A stretch of 10,237 bases of DNA from Huberarchaeum crystalense [NCBI: Candidatus Huberarchaeum crystalense]. Lineage in GTDB: Archaea > Huberarchaeota > Huberarchaeia > Huberarchaeales. Below the pieces are notes generated by a model. That model was not told the origin of the DNA, did no database searches, and was given only the letters and a program-made list of their open reading frames with translations. The position numbers and the translations under genes were made by a program. The stretch lies in NCBI GenBank assembly GCA_002790315.1, contig PFUW01000012.1, positions 6,456 through 16,692 of the forward strand, given 5' to 3'. Shown piece by piece: positions 327 to 7,706 of this stretch (positions within the stretch are counted from its first letter, which is position 1; each line of letters begins with the position of its first letter).

Positions 327-998
327 ATGGCTAATTTTATTGGGGGGATTGACGAAGCAGGTCGTGGGTGTGTTATTGGGCCCTTGGTTGTTTGTTTAGT
401 TAGTATAAGCGAAGAAAAAACCGAACAATTGCAAAAAATAGGTGTAAAGGACTCAAAATTATTATCGCCAGAAATGCGTGCAAAACTCGCTGAAAAAATC
501 AAAAAAATCGCAGACCTTGTTAAAATTCAGAAAATTGAGGTCTCAAAAATTAATAAACTTACTACTTTAAACAATCTCAACCAAATAGAAATCCATGCAT
601 TCTGCGAGCTGATAGATCAATCTAGGTGTGACCAAATAATCATTGATTCTCTAGAAACAAATCTAAAAAAATTTAAGGAAAAAATTAAAAATAATCTCAA
701 AAACTTTGATGGCGAAATTATAGCAAGAAACAAAGCAGATCGCGATTATATAATTGTTGGTGCTGCTTCAATTATTGCAAAAGTTGAAAGAGATAATAAG
801 ATTGCGCACCTTTATAAACAATTTGGCGACTTTGGATCTGGCTACCCAAGCGATGAAAAAACAATTTATTTTTTAAAGGAATATTATAAAAAAAATCATT
901 GTTGGCCTAACTGTGCAAGGACCTGCTGGGATACGCTTAAACAAATAAAGCGAAAAAGCAACAGCAATAAACAAACAACCTTTGATAGATTAGAATAG
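327..998 (+). CDS. rnhB: Ribonuclease HII
   Basis: This 223-aa protein cleaves the RNA strand of RNA-DNA hybrids and incises at single ribonucleotides embedded in DNA. The start at 327 is chosen because GIDEAGRG then lies at residues 7-14, as in archaeal RNase HII. The in-frame ATG at 282 would add a hydrophobic run (MFILFSLLLFFLKSI) unlike the family. The expected metal-binding residues are visible: Asp9-Glu10, Asp107 in IIIDSLETN, and Asp138 in NKADRDY, followed by the conserved AASIIAKVERD stretch and GSGYPSD. Length is normal for the archaeal enzyme. The last 20 or so residues (RKSNSNKQTTFDRLE) are low-complexity, and the final codons are the first unit of a 30-bp tandem repeat. No Shine-Dalgarno is seen. 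The T-rich tract at about 291-313 may hold the promoter. It is a monocistronic-looking gene divergent from the tyrS remnant. Confidence 0.95.
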   Translation: MANFIGGIDEAGRGCVIGPLVVCLVSISEEKTEQLQKIGVKDSKLLSPEMRAKLAEKIKKIADLVKIQKIEVSKINKLTTLNNLNQIEIHAFCELIDQSRCDQIIIDSLETNLKKFKEKIKNNLKNFDGEIIARNKADRDYIIVGAASIIAKVERDNKIAHLYKQFGDFGSGYPSDEKTIYFLKEYYKKNHCWPNCARTCWDTLKQIKRKSNSNKQTTFDRLE

Positions 999-1100
999 GA
1001 TAAAAATAAATTTAATAAATTAGAATAAAACAAAAACAGATTTGAGGGATTAGAATAAAACAAAAACAGATTTAATAAATCAAAATAAAACAAAAACAGA
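981..1100 (+). repeat. Four 30-bp tandem repeats starting in the rnhB 3' end
   Basis: Four units of exactly 30 bp lie at 981-1010, 1011-1040, 1041-1070 and 1071-1100. A typical unit is TTTAATAAATTAGAATAAAA followed by CAAAAACAGA. Unit 1 contains the last rnhB codons (FDRLE-stop). Because 30 is a multiple of three, units 2-4 carry the same frame and read FNKLE-stop, FEGLE-stop and FNKSK-stop. Unit 1 is the most divergent in its last third, while units 2-4 share CAAAAACAGA exactly. The array fills the space up to about 28 bp before the next gene. No function is evident. Slippage duplication of the gene end is the simplest origin. Confidence 0.93.
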
Positions 1101-2536: not shown

Positions 2537-2773
2537 TTAAGCTTTTTCATTTTCTTGTAGTATTTCAGTTATTTTGTTTTTTGTGGTTTCAAGTTCTGTA
2601 AATGACCTCTTAATTTCATTATTTATGGTTTTTATAAGCAGAACACTGTTTTCAGTTTTTTTTAAATTTTCATTAAGACCAATAAGCTCGAGTTTTATTT
2701 TTTCAAAAAGCAAATTAATTTCATTATACTCAGCAGTATCAATAAATAAAGATCCCATTTTTGGTATAATCAT
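2537..2773 (-). CDS. Small coiled-coil protein, second of a paralogous pair
   Basis: This is a 78-aa acidic/lysine-rich protein without signal peptide or membrane segment. After a short head (MIIPKMGSLFID) almost the entire length is predicted helix with heptad-like spacing of L, I and F, so a coiled coil is likely. Its ATG overlaps the TGA of the upstream gene in an ATGA arrangement at 2770-2773, implying translational coupling and stoichiometric production. The motif LFIDTAEYNEI at residues 9-19 aligns without gaps with LFIKIPNYKQI of the upstream protein, and both are followed by about 55 helical residues, so the two look like tandem duplicates. I do not recognise a named family. From memory, short proteins of this F-I-x3-Y-x2-I plus coiled-coil pattern occur in DPANN genomes, but I cannot verify that. 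A heteromeric coiled-coil complex is an inference. Confidence 0.7.
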   Translation of the reverse strand: MIIPKMGSLFIDTAEYNEINLLFEKIKLELIGLNENLKKTENSVLLIKTINNEIKRSFTELETTKNKITEILQENEKA

Positions 2774-3126
2774 TCCAAACGCCCGCCAAACCTTTTATCT
2801 AGTTCTATTAGAATTCCCTCAAACCCAACAATTTTTTGTTTAATAATTTCAATACTAAGCATTTCTTCTTCTTTTTGCTTTTCTAATTCAATTATTTTTT
2901 GACTTATCTCTTTAAGAGACACATCTAATTTGTTTAGCTCGTCGACAATTTGCTTATAATTAGGAATTTTTATGAACAATAGCGACTCATCAATGTTTTG
3001 CAAAGGAGATTGCATAATTGTTTCTATTTTTGCTTTAGTTGTCTGTTCTTCAACTTCTACGGGCGGAAGTTTTTCTGTCTCGTCTTTCTCACTTTTTTCA
3101 CTTTTCCAATCATCCCATCGACCCAT
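2770..3126 (-). CDS. Small charged coiled-coil protein, first of a paralogous pair
   Basis: This 118-aa protein has a strongly charged, probably disordered N-terminus (about residues 1-45, MGRWDDWKSEKSEKDETEK and a PPVEVEE stretch). The motif LFIKIPNYKQI follows at residues 50-60, and then a long helix rich in E, K, L and I to about residue 110. No membrane segment, cysteine pair or catalytic motif is visible. It is the leading gene of a two-gene unit, and its TGA overlaps the start of the 78-aa paralogue. A TATA-like box about 22 nt before the ATG and no Shine-Dalgarno suggest a leaderless mRNA. The conserved part is shared with its neighbour, while the acidic head is unique, so this subunit may carry the interaction or localisation function. 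Function is unknown. Confidence 0.72.
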   Translation of the reverse strand: MGRWDDWKSEKSEKDETEKLPPVEVEEQTTKAKIETIMQSPLQNIDESLLFIKIPNYKQIVDELNKLDVSLKEISQKIIELEKQKEEEMLSIEIIKQKIVGFEGILIELDKRFGGRLE

Positions 3127-3257: not shown

Positions 3258-4595
3258 TTAACAGACTTGTTTTCTTTTTAGTATTTTTATTGCTGCTTTA
3301 AAAAGAAGTTTTTGCTCGCAATTTTGAATCTGCCCATAAATGTTTAAAATGCTATTTTCATCAAATATTTCAAAACATAGTGGCTGTTCTAATAAAAGCA
3401 ATTGTAAAATTGTTTCTGAATCTTGCGACTGCATAAAAAATACACAATCAACACCAATAGTCTTACAGCGCGCGCTAATATATTCTAGTTCTTGTAGTAG
3501 TAAATTTTCAGACAAAGAATTTACTTTTAACAAAAGTTGTTTTGGATGCAATTTCAATAGATCGTCAATAGAAAGCGCGTCTTGCTCACGAACTAAAAAA
3601 CCAAAAATATAATTAAAACTTCGCAAAACAGAAACAACCTCTTCAATTTGAAAAATATCAAAACCAGAGCAATCAAGCAAAATTTTTAAATCGCGCAAAA
3701 AATATGTGCTTGCCATAGACAACAAGGTATTTATTTGCTCTTTTTTTACAATTATCCACTTAGAACTATCTGCCGATTTATTATTAAAATATATATAAGA
3801 AGCAAGATTATTGTTTAGGTTTGCTAAAAATAAAACTTGGGTAAAAGGCAATTGTAAATTTAAATCAGTTTCTTTAACTTGATTTTCAATAATATTAATA
3901 AATCTTATTAAAAAGATAGAACTATTTTCTATAACAAATTGTGCAACAGTATTTTTTAAATTTAGTTGTTGAAGTTGTGCAATAAATTGCCGAAGCAATA
4001 TTTTGTCTTGTGTATTTAATTTTTGTTGTGTTTGCTGCTCTTGGGAAATAGGCACAGATATTAAATCAAATGTGTAATCGTCTCTTGCTAACCTCTTTGT
4101 TTGTGAAAAAATCTTTTTAGGCACAATTTCTTGACTGTTCTGATCAAAAATATATTCTTCAAATTCAGAGTCCTTAGCATACATACCTATTTTGGCTTTT
4201 ATTCTAATTTCAGAATTTTTAAACTCAACATCCCCACTTTTTTCTGCAAAAATTGTGCGTTGCACAAGAATATTTTTTCCATCTTTAACAATGGACTTTA
4301 TATTAGCAAAAAAATCCGCAAAACTTCGAATATTATATTTTTCAAAATCTTCACAAAACAAACTTATTGGAAAAATATCATGTGTTTTCGCAAGTGAAAT
4401 ATTAGCATAAGTGAGTTGCTGTTGTGTATTAGAAGTGAAAGACACATAAAAAGCGCGCAACTGCTGTTCATCAAGAGCAGATTCATCTTGCTTTTGACAA
4501 ACAAGCAAACTTGTTTGGGGTAATTTAAACCCTACACTGCGCGCTGCTGTTAAAAGAAAAGAGTTATCAAGTTGATTAAGAGAAAGTATTTTCAT
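3258..4595 (-). CDS. Degenerate PEP synthase/PPDK-like protein, probable pseudoenzyme
   Basis: This is a 445-aa soluble protein. I read it as an eroded member of the PEP-utilising family (PEP synthase, PPDK, enzyme I), normally about 750-900 aa. Residues 18-32 (ARSVGFKLPQTSLLV) fit the AGxPVPPGFVVT start of the ATP-binding domain. Residues 109-125 (ILVQRTIFAEKSGDVEF) fit VVVQxMVxSExSGVxFT. Residues 131-169 fit the following I-x-I-x-A-x-x-G, Y-x-x-D and K-x-x-Q stretch. VIENSSIFLIRFINI (221-235) fits WAIEDGKIYILQSRPIT. The C-terminal part resembles the PEP/pyruvate TIM barrel: TQVLFLANLNNNLA (252-265), a segment at 331-362 resembling MVExPAAVLLADEL and SIGTNDL, and MQSQDSETILQLLL (388-401) at the place of CGxxASDP. 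The phosphohistidine swivel domain, the RSS motif, the catalytic Cys and the GSND motif are missing or replaced. The reading frame is nevertheless intact. Homology is by eye and catalysis is unlikely; a regulatory or structural role is inference. It is divergent from ligase. Confidence 0.6.
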   Translation of the reverse strand: MKILSLNQLDNSFLLTAARSVGFKLPQTSLLVCQKQDESALDEQQLRAFYVSFTSNTQQQLTYANISLAKTHDIFPISLFCEDFEKYNIRSFADFFANIKSIVKDGKNILVQRTIFAEKSGDVEFKNSEIRIKAKIGMYAKDSEFEEYIFDQNSQEIVPKKIFSQTKRLARDDYTFDLISVPISQEQQTQQKLNTQDKILLRQFIAQLQQLNLKNTVAQFVIENSSIFLIRFINIIENQVKETDLNLQLPFTQVLFLANLNNNLASYIYFNNKSADSSKWIIVKKEQINTLLSMASTYFLRDLKILLDCSGFDIFQIEEVVSVLRSFNYIFGFLVREQDALSIDDLLKLHPKQLLLKVNSLSENLLLQELEYISARCKTIGVDCVFFMQSQDSETILQLLLLEQPLCFEIFDENSILNIYGQIQNCEQKLLFKAAIKILKRKQVC

Positions 4596-4744
4596 AAATT
4601 TTTTAGATTAGTGAACAAGCATGATAGATAAACAATTTTGTAAATTTTTTAGATTAGTGAATAGATATAATATCTAATCAATTTTGTAAATTTTTTAGAT
4701 TAGTGAATAGATATAATATCTAATCAATTTTGTAAATTTTTTAG
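4596..4744. repeat. 46-bp tandem repeat array in the divergent promoter region
   Basis: Three complete 46-bp units lie at 4596-4641, 4642-4687 and 4688-4733, followed by the first 11 bases of a fourth at 4734-4744. Each begins with AAATTTTTTAG; units 2 and 3 are identical and unit 1 differs in its middle third. The first base touches the start codon of the PEP-synthase-like gene (ATG complement at 4593-4595). The partial fourth unit forms the probable promoter of DNA ligase. Units 2 and 3 contain the 15-nt palindrome TAGATATAATATCTA at 4662-4676 and 4708-4722, which could bind a dimeric regulator. Promoter duplication or an operator array are both possible. Confidence 0.93.
4737..4744 (+). 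promoter_or_regulatory. T-rich promoter-like box for DNA ligase
   Basis: The run TTTTTTAG is centred about 23 nt upstream of the ligase ATG at 4763, and no Shine-Dalgarno precedes that ATG (AGCCAAAAAACAT). A similar TTTTTTA box occurs about 29 nt upstream of ftsZ and LSm and a T-run about 29 nt upstream of taw1, so it may be this genome's form of the TATA element. It is inside the partial fourth copy of the 46-bp repeat. Confidence 0.4.
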
Positions 4745-4762
4745 AAGACAGCCAAAAAACAT

Positions 4763-6439
4763 ATGAAATATCTTAAACTTGCTGAACTTTACAAAATATT
4801 GGAAGAAACACCTAGCACACTCGAAAAAACAAAAATAATATCTAACTTTTTAAAAAATATGACATCAAAAAGTGAAATAGAAAATGTAATTATGCTTATT
4901 TTGGGGCGCGCATCATCAAAAATTGAAGGGGTTGTATTTAATATGGCTGAAAATTTAATTATAAAAGCAATTTCTTTGAGCAGCGGAAAATCTATCAAAT
5001 ATATCAAAGACATTTTTGCAAAAACAGGAGACCTCGGGCTAACAACAGAAAAAATTCTTGAAAACAATTATCAAAAATCACTTTTTTCAAAAGAGCTAAC
5101 AATTTCAGATATAATTGCTAATCTAAGAAAACTTGCAGAAATAGAAGGAAAAAAATCTCAAAATATCAAAATAAACATACTTCTTAATCTTTTAAATCAA
5201 GCATCGCCGCTTGAAAAACGCTATTTGATTAGAACTATTTTAGGTCAACTAAGAACGGGTGTGTCTGACGGTTTTGTTAGAAATGCGCTAGCCAATGCTT
5301 TTGACAAAGATCCAAATATTGTTCAGCAAGCCATTGATTATACAAATGACATTTCAGAAGTTGCTGTTGCAGTGGTTGAAAATAGGATTGAAAAAATTAA
5401 ACCTTGCTTGTTTAAGCCGATTTCTTCTATGTTAGCGCAAAAAGAGCCTTCAATTGAAGAAGCATTAAAAAGGTTTGAAAAACCGTCAGCAATAGAACAA
5501 AAGTATGATGGAATGCGCGCACAAATTCATAAAAAAAAAGATATAGTTATAATTTTTACGCGACGGTTAGAAAATATAACAAAACAATTCCCTGAGCTTG
5601 CTAAGTTAGTAAAAACAAACATAAAAGCAGAACAAGCAATTGTTGAAGGAGAAATTGTAGCTATTGATGAAAATAGAAAACCCCTACCATTTCAATTTTT
5701 ATCCCAGAGAGTTAAACGAAAATATGGTATTGAAAAAATAATAAAACAAATACCTATTGAAATCAATTTATTTGATTGTTTGCTTGTTGATGAAGAAATT
5801 ATAATAAATACCCCCTTTAAAGAGAGGAGAAAAAAATTAGAATTAATTGTTAAGGAAAGTAAAAACTTTTATCTTGCTAAGCAAATCATAAGCGATTCTG
5901 CTGACGAGATTAATAAATTTTATAAAGATGCATTAAAAATAGGTCATGAAGGAATAATACTTAAAAATCGCGATTCACCTTATGTTCCTGGAAAAAGAGT
6001 AGGACATATGCTAAAACTTAAACCTGTTTTAGAAACATTAGATTTAGTTATTGTTGGTGGTGATTGGGGTGAAGGAAAGCGCACGCAGTGGTTTGGATCT
6101 TTTCTTTTGGCGTGTGTCAATAAACAAACAGGTGAATATTTGACAATTGGAAAAATGGGCTCAGGCTTAACAGATGAAGAGTTTGCAAACATTACTGTTG
6201 AACTAAAAAAAGACATAATAAAGCAAGAAGGAAAGAGTGTGCAATTTTATCCAAAAATTGTTGTTGAGGTTGCTTATGAAGAGATACAAAAATCACTTGT
6301 TTATACAAGCAAGTATGCTTTAAGATTTCCGAGATTAGTAAAAATTAGAGATGATCGGCTGCCGACAGATGCCAGTGATTTGGAAGTTGTTGAAGAAATT
6401 TATAAACAGCAAAAAGGCAAGATTACAAATTATATTTAA
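4763..6439 (+). CDS. lig: ATP-dependent DNA ligase (archaeal type)
   Basis: This 558-aa enzyme seals nicks in duplex DNA by AMP transfer from ATP to its active-site lysine, then to the 5' phosphate; it joins Okazaki fragments and completes repair. Length fits the archaeal family (about 560 aa). Residues 1 to about 225 form the helical DNA-binding domain, including RTILGQLRTGVSDG. The adenylation domain carries motif I EQKYDGMRAQ with Lys247, motif III VEGEIVAID (294-302), motif IV GHEGIILKN (394-402) and motif V MLKLKP (416-421), followed by the WFGSFLLA and IGKMGSGLTDEE segments of the OB-fold domain and motif VI-like ALRFPRLVKIRDD near the end. All catalytic elements are intact. It is transcribed alone, with a promoter in the 46-bp repeat array, and its 3' end overlaps ftsZ by 17 bp in convergent orientation. 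RNase HII in the same window acts upstream of it in ribonucleotide excision. Confidence 0.97.
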   Translation: MKYLKLAELYKILEETPSTLEKTKIISNFLKNMTSKSEIENVIMLILGRASSKIEGVVFNMAENLIIKAISLSSGKSIKYIKDIFAKTGDLGLTTEKILENNYQKSLFSKELTISDIIANLRKLAEIEGKKSQNIKINILLNLLNQASPLEKRYLIRTILGQLRTGVSDGFVRNALANAFDKDPNIVQQAIDYTNDISEVAVAVVENRIEKIKPCLFKPISSMLAQKEPSIEEALKRFEKPSAIEQKYDGMRAQIHKKKDIVIIFTRRLENITKQFPELAKLVKTNIKAEQAIVEGEIVAIDENRKPLPFQFLSQRVKRKYGIEKIIKQIPIEINLFDCLLVDEEIIINTPFKERRKKLELIVKESKNFYLAKQIISDSADEINKFYKDALKIGHEGIILKNRDSPYVPGKRVGHMLKLKPVLETLDLVIVGGDWGEGKRTQWFGSFLLACVNKQTGEYLTIGKMGSGLTDEEFANITVELKKDIIKQEGKSVQFYPKIVVEVAYEEIQKSLVYTSKYALRFPRLVKIRDDRLPTDASDLEVVEEIYKQQKGKITNYI

Positions 6440-7706
6440 GGTTCTCAAAATTATCATCGTCTTCATCAGAATTTATGTCTTTAATTCCAAGTTCTAAAAT
6501 ATCTTGATTTTTTGCGCGCTCTCTTTCAATTCTTTCTTTTGCGTCCTCGTTTGCTCCACTTGTTAGTGCTTCAATGTTTAAATTGCGCGCTAAGGTTTCA
6601 GTAGCTTTTTTCTCCATAGTTGCCCGGGGACCCAGTATTTGTGCAGAATTAACATTTGTGATTAACAGTAAAAGTTTAACTGCATTTTCTTGGGCTTCGT
6701 CATATTGACAGCCCCAAATTTTCTTAGCACCATGAGCCATATTGTCAAGTTTTTTAATTATTTGATTTACTTGCGGCAAGGTCACTTTATTGTTAATTGT
6801 TATGTTTATAAGCATACCTGTAGCATCTGAAATATCTACACTAAGCAAAGGATTTGAAGTTGTATTGTTTATTAGTTCGTCAACAAAACCCTCATTATTT
6901 TGCGTAATACTGCTTACTCCAATCATTGCTACACCTCCTTCTTTCATTATGCTGCGAACATCATTAAAGTCCAAATTTATAAGTCCTGGTTTAACAACCA
7001 TATCTGCAATACCTTTTACTGCATTAGATATAATATTGTCGCACAACTTAAATGCATCTTTAAGTGATAAAGTAGGACTTATATTTAATAGTTTATCATT
7101 TGGAACAACAATAAGTGTATGAACTATGTTTTCAATCTCGCGAAATGCTTTTTTGCTGTTTTCCCATCTCTGCTTTCCTTCTGCTTCAAAAGGTAAAGTG
7201 ACAATTCCAACTACTAATGCACCAGTTTTTTTTGCTATTGCTGCGATAACAGGTGCTGCTCCACTACCTGTCCCACCCCCAAGTCCGCAAGTTATAAAAA
7301 CCATATCTGCATTATCTAACACATCTTGAATTTCCTTACTACTGTTTTCTGCTGCTTTTCTTCCTTTTTCAGGATCTGCGCCTGTTCCTAAGCCATGGGT
7401 AAGATCTTCGCCAATCAGTATTTTTTTATGCGCCTTTTTATTCAAAAGGTCTTGAGCATCTGTGTTTATTGCTATTGTTTCAAAACCCAAACCACTAAAT
7501 TCCATCAAATTATTCAAAGTATTGTTACCAGCTCCGCCAATGCCGACAACGCGAATTGCGCGGCTATTTTTTTTAACAAGTTCGCGCAACTTTTCCTCAA
7601 CACCTAACAAGCCAGCGTTTGACGATGAGGATTCATAAGTTAAGTAAGATGAAGGTAGAGAATCATAAGGTGTAATGTTTGCCTTTGACGAGGAGATAAT
7701 AACCAT
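6423..7706 (-). CDS. ftsZ: Cell division GTPase FtsZ
   Basis: This 427-aa tubulin-superfamily GTPase polymerises into the ring that drives archaeal cell division. The nucleotide-binding part starts with [12 protein letters not shown] after an N-terminal extension of about 50 residues. That extension is serine-rich ([13 protein letters not shown]) and then charged and helical ([15 protein letters not shown]). The tubulin signature GGGTGSG occupies residues 143-149, and the T7 synergy loop NLDFND carries Asp246 and Asp249, which activate GTP hydrolysis in the adjacent subunit, so the GTPase looks active. The tail after about residue 370 is charged ([33 protein letters not shown]) and probably serves as the partner-binding linker and peptide. 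The start at 7706 is supported by mirror symmetry with the LSm start in a shared palindrome. Transcription is divergent from LSm-eL37 and convergent with ligase. Confidence 0.97.

What the first reader, a model, noticed from the sequence alone, without database searches (positions are those of the whole stretch)
3258..4595. Intact 445-codon pseudoenzyme derived from the PEP synthase/PPDK family
Landmarks of the ATP-binding domain and of the PEP/pyruvate TIM barrel occur in the correct order over the entire length, but the phosphohistidine domain is absent and the catalytic Cys, GSND and RSS motifs are gone. An intact frame with lost catalysis points to a new role, for example a ligand sensor or a partner of the true PEP synthase, or to a gene in early decay. 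It also has its own unusual promoter region.
Basis: partly seen in the sequence, partly recalled or inferred. Interest (0 to 1): 0.72.

Follow-up and report, generated by a model that had tools for sequence, protein, structure and literature searches.

The report
Dead PEP synthase relic in archaeon
A small archaeon keeps an intact gene descended from the metabolic enzyme PEP synthase although the protein has lost the parts needed for that chemistry, and other archaea carry similarly degraded copies that natural selection still preserves, which suggests an unrecognised non-enzymatic job.

Summary
The 445-codon ORF (3258-4595, minus strand) is real and in frame. A profile of 14 archaeal PEP synthases (PpsA), not picked for likeness to it, finds one place in its whole genome: this ORF (E 6.5e-6, residues 145-242). 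Pairwise, residues 107-243 are 27% identical to one archaeal PpsA (score 112; best of 1000 shuffles 72). Standard Pfam, NCBIfam and PDB searches miss it. In that stretch it keeps 4 of 17 invariant PpsA residues. The catalytic-histidine domain is not detectable. The C-terminal half is predicted to be TIM-barrel-like, but descent from the PpsA barrel is not significant by sequence. No PpsA, enolase or pyruvate kinase was found in the assembly (75% complete). I also found ten degraded PpsA paralogues forming a clade across six archaeal families, and five Korarchaeum-like ones in which no histidine domain was seen; four related pairs show dN/dS 0.12-0.17. This makes a kept, non-catalytic role likelier than decay, but no relative of the window gene itself was found, so its own selection is untested.

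The parts
3258..4595 (-). Intact 445-codon ORF, PpsA-derived pseudoenzyme
3867..4277 (-). Residues 107-243: stretch homologous to the ATP-grasp (PPDK_N) domain of PpsA (PpsA ~195-342), 37 of 135 residues identical to L003; 4 of 17 invariant residues kept
   Evidence: profile hit 3870-4163 (residues 145-242) E 6.5e-6
4278..4595 (-). Residues 1-106: presumed remnant of the N-terminal part of PPDK_N (GGKG and RSS loops lost); position only, no significant similarity of its own
3261..3866 (-). Residues 244-445: C-terminal beta/alpha, TIM-barrel-like domain by single-sequence AlphaFold of residues 240-445 (ten-residue mean pLDDT 57-90 over about 280-439, below 40 before that); presumed compacted PEP/pyruvate barrel
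   Evidence: sequence link inconclusive
4595..4745 (.). 46-bp tandem repeat, 3.3 copies, in the intergenic region between this gene and the divergent DNA ligase

Best explanation
The ORF encodes a catalytically dead descendant of archaeal phosphoenolpyruvate synthase. Shown: the middle stretch descends from the PpsA ATP-grasp domain and has lost most invariant residues, and no working PpsA was found in the assembly. Inferred: the phosphohistidine domain was deleted, so the ATP-grasp remnant now runs straight into a shortened TIM barrel. It should be unable to move phosphate from ATP to pyruvate. Most likely mechanism (inferred): after the lineage lost the PEP-pyruvate end of glycolysis, the scaffold was kept as a binding or structural protein, with the barrel face or an old oligomer surface holding a ligand or partner.
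For: Unselected 14-sequence PpsA profile: one hit in the own genome at E <= 10, this ORF, E 6.5e-6. Smith-Waterman against L003 112 (max of 1000 shuffles 72), L074 84 (64), L024 80 (64); L074 and L024 were fetched without regard to the query. In 394 genomes (own included), 9 of 22 non-self genomes with a hit at E <= 0.05 hit a PpsA ORF, all within query residues 109-242. Match rate to the PpsA majority is flat across conservation classes: 12/44, 10/48, 6/26, 4/17, as expected once catalytic constraint is gone. Frame intact: simulated neutral substitution to 25% identity gives a mean of 27.8 in-frame stops, minimum 20 in 30 runs. No PPDK_N, enolase or pyruvate kinase in the own genome, while 116 of 120 other archaeal genomes have PPDK_N. 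Degraded PpsA proteins elsewhere are under purifying selection.
Against: Pfam PPDK_N does not hit the ORF or the genome even at E <= 10. L003, L074 and L024 are among the best of 77 PpsA-type proteins compared; z ran from 14.7 to -1.0, mean 3.5. Unrelated ORFs reached 44-76 against the best of eight PpsA, so 80-84 alone would be thin. With a 29-sequence profile HMMER gave E 1.5e-4 for one comparison, 2 of 2000 shuffles as good; hhalign 3 of 150 shuffles and 4 of 100 decoys as good. With the profile that included query-selected PpsA, 0 of 150 shuffles but 2 of 100 decoys were as good: one is a PpsA paralogue, one (L015) looks like an unrelated epimerase. N- and C-terminal parts have no significant sequence link. 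No relative of the ORF itself was found, so its own selection cannot be measured. Genome 75% complete: a true PpsA may be missing.
Confidence: 0.55

Rival explanations
1. The ORF is the most reduced member of an ancient clade of degraded PpsA paralogues in archaea, rather than an independent degeneration, and shares that clade's unknown role.
For: Ten such paralogues from six families form one clade in an N-domain tree (support 0.87); L061 of this clade scores 80 against the ORF (max of 200 shuffles 61); dN/dS 0.13 and 0.17 for two pairs of the clade.
Against: The ORF matches canonical PpsA L003 and L074 better (112, 84). Of the ten, only L061, L057 and L066 exceed all 200 shuffles. The tree of its own stretch puts it beside the Korarchaeum-like proteins with branch length 2.5, which is not informative.
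Confidence: 0.2
2. A gene in decay: PpsA became dispensable and the ORF happens to be still open.
For: Match rate does not rise at invariant positions; high Gln and low Gly against its neighbours; the pathway genes tested are not found.
Against: About 28 stops are expected at this divergence if neutral, none seen. Codon usage is normal. Much of the C-terminal half is predicted with fair confidence from one sequence.
Confidence: 0.15
3. PpsA-derived N-terminal part joined to an unrelated TIM barrel, for example an EAL-like one.
For: EAL domains lead the fold matches (Foldseek E 3e-5; VIA Z 11.6 over 184 residues at rmsd 6.3; Z 11.3 over 142 residues at rmsd 3.9).
Against: No EAL hit anywhere in the genome even at E <= 10. 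Many other TIM barrels match nearly as well, among them SbnG (Z 9.0 over 150 residues at rmsd 4.6; its place in the PEP/pyruvate superfamily is recalled). Order ATP-grasp then barrel is that of PpsA.
Confidence: 0.07
4. Chance similarity: an orphan protein unrelated to PpsA.
For: Curated families and PDB give nothing significant; hhalign marginal.
Against: Own-genome profile E 6.5e-6 and pairwise scores beyond 1000 shuffles for three PpsA.
Confidence: 0.03

Closest known systems
Archaeal PEP synthase (PpsA, pyruvate water dikinase, TIGR01418; e.g. L003, L074)
   Same: Residues 107-243 align in order with the second half of the ATP-grasp domain; predicted C-terminal barrel in the right place
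   Different: 445 instead of about 770 residues, phosphohistidine domain not found, barrel shortened, 13 of 17 invariant residues in the aligned stretch changed or missing
Korarchaeum-like 541-608 aa PPDK_N proteins (L056, L059, L065, L067, L068)
   Same: PPDK_N followed by a short C-terminal domain, no Pfam histidine domain or PEP barrel in the two scanned (L056, L068), no canonical PpsA listed in those five genomes
   Different: No significant sequence similarity to the window protein; Pfam still recognises PPDK_N, and several ATP-site residues (K30, R141, E325, Q337 of L074) are kept
Degraded PpsA paralogue clade (L057, L058, L060, L061, L063, L064, L066, L069-L071)
   Same: PpsA-derived, barrel active-site residues gone, intact frames
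   Different: Keep most of the length (about 700-980 aa, except L066 with 312), in genomes that mostly also have a canonical PpsA (9 of 10); Pfam still recognises PPDK_N in the seven scanned

Membership tests
PEP synthase (EC 2.7.9.2) | Homology to the ATP-grasp (PPDK_N) domain | tested here: met
   Residues 145-242, E 6.5e-6 in own genome; pairwise scores. Pfam PPDK_N itself does not hit.
PEP synthase (EC 2.7.9.2) | Invariant ATP-site residues (GGKG, RSS, DIEW motifs) | tested here: not met
   4 of 17 invariants kept in the aligned stretch, DIEW changed; no GGKG or RSS in the protein
PEP synthase (EC 2.7.9.2) | Phosphohistidine domain with catalytic His (PF00391) | tested here: not met
   No Pfam hit; alignment to it no better than shuffles; no other place in the own genome matches the full PpsA profile
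PEP synthase (EC 2.7.9.2) | PEP-binding TIM barrel (PF02896) | tested here: inconclusive
   No Pfam hit; barrel-like fold, sequence not significant
PEP synthase (EC 2.7.9.2) | NCBIfam PEP_synth equivalog score | tested here: not met
   0 NCBIfam families at E <= 10
Degraded PpsA paralogue clade found here | Groups with that clade in a tree | tested here: inconclusive
   Long branch, placed beside Korarchaeum-like proteins
EAL domain | PF00563 match | tested here: not met
   No match in own genome at E <= 10, fold similarity only

The most novel reading that the evidence does not exclude
Archaea carry an ancient, selected family of PEP-synthase pseudoenzymes with a non-metabolic job, in some lineages tied to the ribosome (gene next to L10e), and the window protein is its most reduced form, kept in a cell that has lost PEP metabolism altogether.
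Probability: 0.2. Interest if true: 0.75.

Novelty: new variant of a known kind. Interest (0 to 1): 0.52.

Why it matters
Pseudoenzymes are well known, but I found no description of one derived from PEP synthase, by itself or as a recurring archaeal family (PMC searches; most subscription papers are not held). Relatives that still hit PPDK_N may be named 'PEP synthase' and credit tiny archaea with a step they lack. A scaffold kept after its pathway has gone gives a testable case of what such a protein does without chemistry.

Tried and rejected
Relatives of the ORF: none in genome contigs or viral contigs; in 61 and 394 genomes (own included) only weak local hits, part of them PpsA. No other genome of its phylum is held. 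A synteny route through the DNA ligase found nothing. L002, the first weak hit, looks unrelated by eye and scores like background against PpsA. Defence and phage libraries: nothing for the ORF.

Phosphohistidine domain hidden in residues 244-317: suggested by the MAFFT alignment, not borne out by shuffles. EAL domain: leads the fold lists but has no sequence support. PpsA or PPDK rows do not appear among the 50 fold matches shown; that excludes nothing. A separately encoded histidine domain or a second PpsA piece: none found in the own genome. The four archaeal genomes without PPDK_N were searched with the PpsA profile for similar relics: one hit, in an 879-aa ORF of G097 at the barrel part, not followed up.

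Two weak hits (L011, L023) look like DUF1016-type nucleases (recalled, not scanned); they match the same query stretch and count against reading that list as purely PpsA. Thirteen of its 22 non-self hits are not PpsA.

First profile (E 2.3e-9) contained 7 of 17 PpsA picked by likeness to the query; I rely instead. One search failed and its printed numbers are stale leftovers; one search replaces it.

Full report
What is there. The ORF at 3258-4595 (minus) is 445 codons without a stop. Its codon preference matches its neighbours (r 0.89; four neighbours tested the same way 0.88-0.91) and its coding score per codon is 0.179 in frame, against -0.02 in the other two forward frames and at most 0.078 on the other strand. 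It is rich in Gln (9.0%) and poor in Gly (1.8%) relative to the neighbours. The window lies on an 11.5-kb contig of a 500-kb assembly, 75% complete, the only one of its phylum held. Neighbours by Pfam: PIN domain, DNA ligase, NUDIX, wyosine-type radical SAM protein, ribosomal L37e; RNase HII, FtsZ, Sm-like and the ATPase half of the PIN protein are named by recall.

Is it PpsA-derived? Curated libraries say nothing: no significant Pfam, NCBIfam or PDB match. Searching 394 genomes (own included) gave 22 non-self genomes with weak hits (E <= 0.05). Nine hit PpsA ORFs, all within query residues 109-242; thirteen do not. Pfam was run on one of the nine, L003, which is a full PpsA. To remove selection bias I built a profile from 14 PpsA chosen only through PPDK_N searches and searched the whole own genome: a single match at E <= 10, this ORF, E 6.5e-6, residues 145-242. 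Pairwise scores are 112 for L003, 84 for L074 and 80 for L024; the best of 1000 shuffles were 72, 64 and 64. These are among the best of 77 PpsA-type proteins compared, whose z ran from 14.7 to -1.0 with mean 3.5, and unrelated ORFs reached up to 76 against the best of eight PpsA. Weaker profile results are told under evidence against. On balance I take homology of residues 107-243 as established.

What has been lost. Against L003, 37 of 135 aligned residues are identical but only 4 of 17 invariant positions are kept. The match to the PpsA majority is about the same in all conservation classes: 12/44, 10/48, 6/26, 4/17. In the still recognisable paralogue L061 it rises in the most conserved class (14/44, 13/48, 10/26, 11/17). 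So the window protein evolved without the constraint of PpsA chemistry.

Rest of the protein. Residues 1-106: no significant similarity on their own. The histidine domain is not detectable. Residues 240-445 folded alone as a single sequence give alternating strands and helices, mean pLDDT 65, ten-residue means 57-90 over about 280-439 and below 40 before that; the other four models were poorer, 31-43. Fold matches are TIM barrels, EAL domains first (Z 11.3 over 142 residues at rmsd 3.9), with muconate cycloisomerases, dehydroquinases, PdxJ and SbnG lower. Sequence against the PpsA barrel is suggestive at best. Residues 318-445: z 2.3, 2 of 100 shuffles as good against the whole barrel; against its end 16 of 100 with BLOSUM62 and 2 of 100 with BLOSUM45. 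A profile of the whole barrel: 7 of 200 shuffles and 12 of 131 decoys as good, and the best alignment ended in mid-barrel rather than at the C-terminus. That the barrel is the PpsA barrel is an inference from domain order.

Genome setting. No PPDK_N, enolase or pyruvate kinase was found, and the full PpsA profile finds no second place. PPDK_N is present in 116 of 120 other archaeal genomes searched. If absences were independent and due only to incompleteness, three would coincide about 1.6% of the time (my arithmetic, 0.25 cubed). The organism therefore probably lacks the PEP-pyruvate end of glycolysis.

A wider pattern. Among lower-scoring PPDK_N rows I fetched 20 and found many with catalytic residues changed. 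Ten, from six families, form one clade beside canonical PpsA in an N-domain tree (support 0.87); all are fast-evolving, so long-branch attraction is possible. Of the nine that have a barrel, none keeps the residues equivalent to R515, N681 and C729 of L074 in the alignment, three keep the His equivalent to H421, and all nine keep the lysine of the GGKG loop (that these are active-site residues is recalled). Nine of the ten genomes also list a canonical PpsA. Five more proteins, 541-608 aa, come from the family of G037 (a single 1,590,757-bp contig, which I recall as Korarchaeum cryptofilum). The two scanned have PPDK_N but no histidine or PEP-barrel hit, the alignment leaves the histidine position empty in all five, and those genomes list no canonical PpsA. 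A comparison of their C-terminal part with the PpsA barrel was not significant (hhalign probability 3.7). dN/dS for four pairs of degraded proteins is 0.166, 0.116, 0.163 and 0.132, against 0.042 for canonical PpsA in the first of these genome pairs. Two of the four have dS above 1.5; one further degraded pair and one canonical pair were saturated. So such proteins are kept by selection, under weaker constraint than the enzyme. In 3 of 8 clade neighbourhoods inspected the gene follows ribosomal protein L10e directly (Pfam was run on those three L10e genes, the other five neighbourhoods were judged by the first residues of each ORF).

Selection on the window gene. No relative is available. Simulated neutral substitution of this CDS (no indels) to 25% identity gave a mean of 27.8 in-frame stops in 30 runs, minimum 20. 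The open frame therefore argues for selection over most of its divergence, though it cannot exclude recent relaxation.

Verdict. A PpsA-derived pseudoenzyme is the best reading; its function is inferred as binding or structural. It fails membership as a PEP synthase on tested features.

Literature. Search listings only plus passages of PMC8100219 (PpsA of Staphylothermus marinus is a 24-subunit complex), PMC12892359 and PMC9723730. I saw no account of PpsA pseudoenzymes.

Noticed in passing
L096:4509-7046, L101:4640-6748, L102:4377-6611: Degraded PpsA paralogues directly downstream of ribosomal protein L10e in three archaeal families; a dCMP-deaminase gene is adjacent to L10e in L101 and about 2.2 kb away in L096, and DUF1512 genes are nearby in L101 and L102.
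   Followed up: partly
L097:4355-5956, L105:5137-6777: Korarchaeum-like PPDK_N protein without a recognisable histidine domain sits between a SAM hydroxide adenosyltransferase (Pfam run on the L097 copy only) and a 354-355 aa ORF in both genomes.
   Followed up: partly
L096:1864-4305 and 4509-7046: Canonical ppsA and a degraded paralogue in tandem, a possible heteromer.
   Followed up: no
L095 (G097:C11:3665-4258): An 879-aa ORF matches only the barrel part of the PpsA profile (E 1.4e-13) in a genome without a PPDK_N hit.
   Followed up: no
window 2537-3126: Two short overlapping ORFs (118 and 78 aa), coiled-coil-like by eye, downstream on the same strand; no curated family match over its cut-off.
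   Followed up: no
window 981-1100: 30-base tandem repeat, 4 copies, between RNase HII and the PIN-domain gene.
   Followed up: no
window 327-998 and L098:2115-2837, L104:8208-8909: RNase HII (by recall of its motif) lies a few genes from a PpsA pseudoenzyme both here and in two genomes of family f14; may be chance.
   Followed up: no
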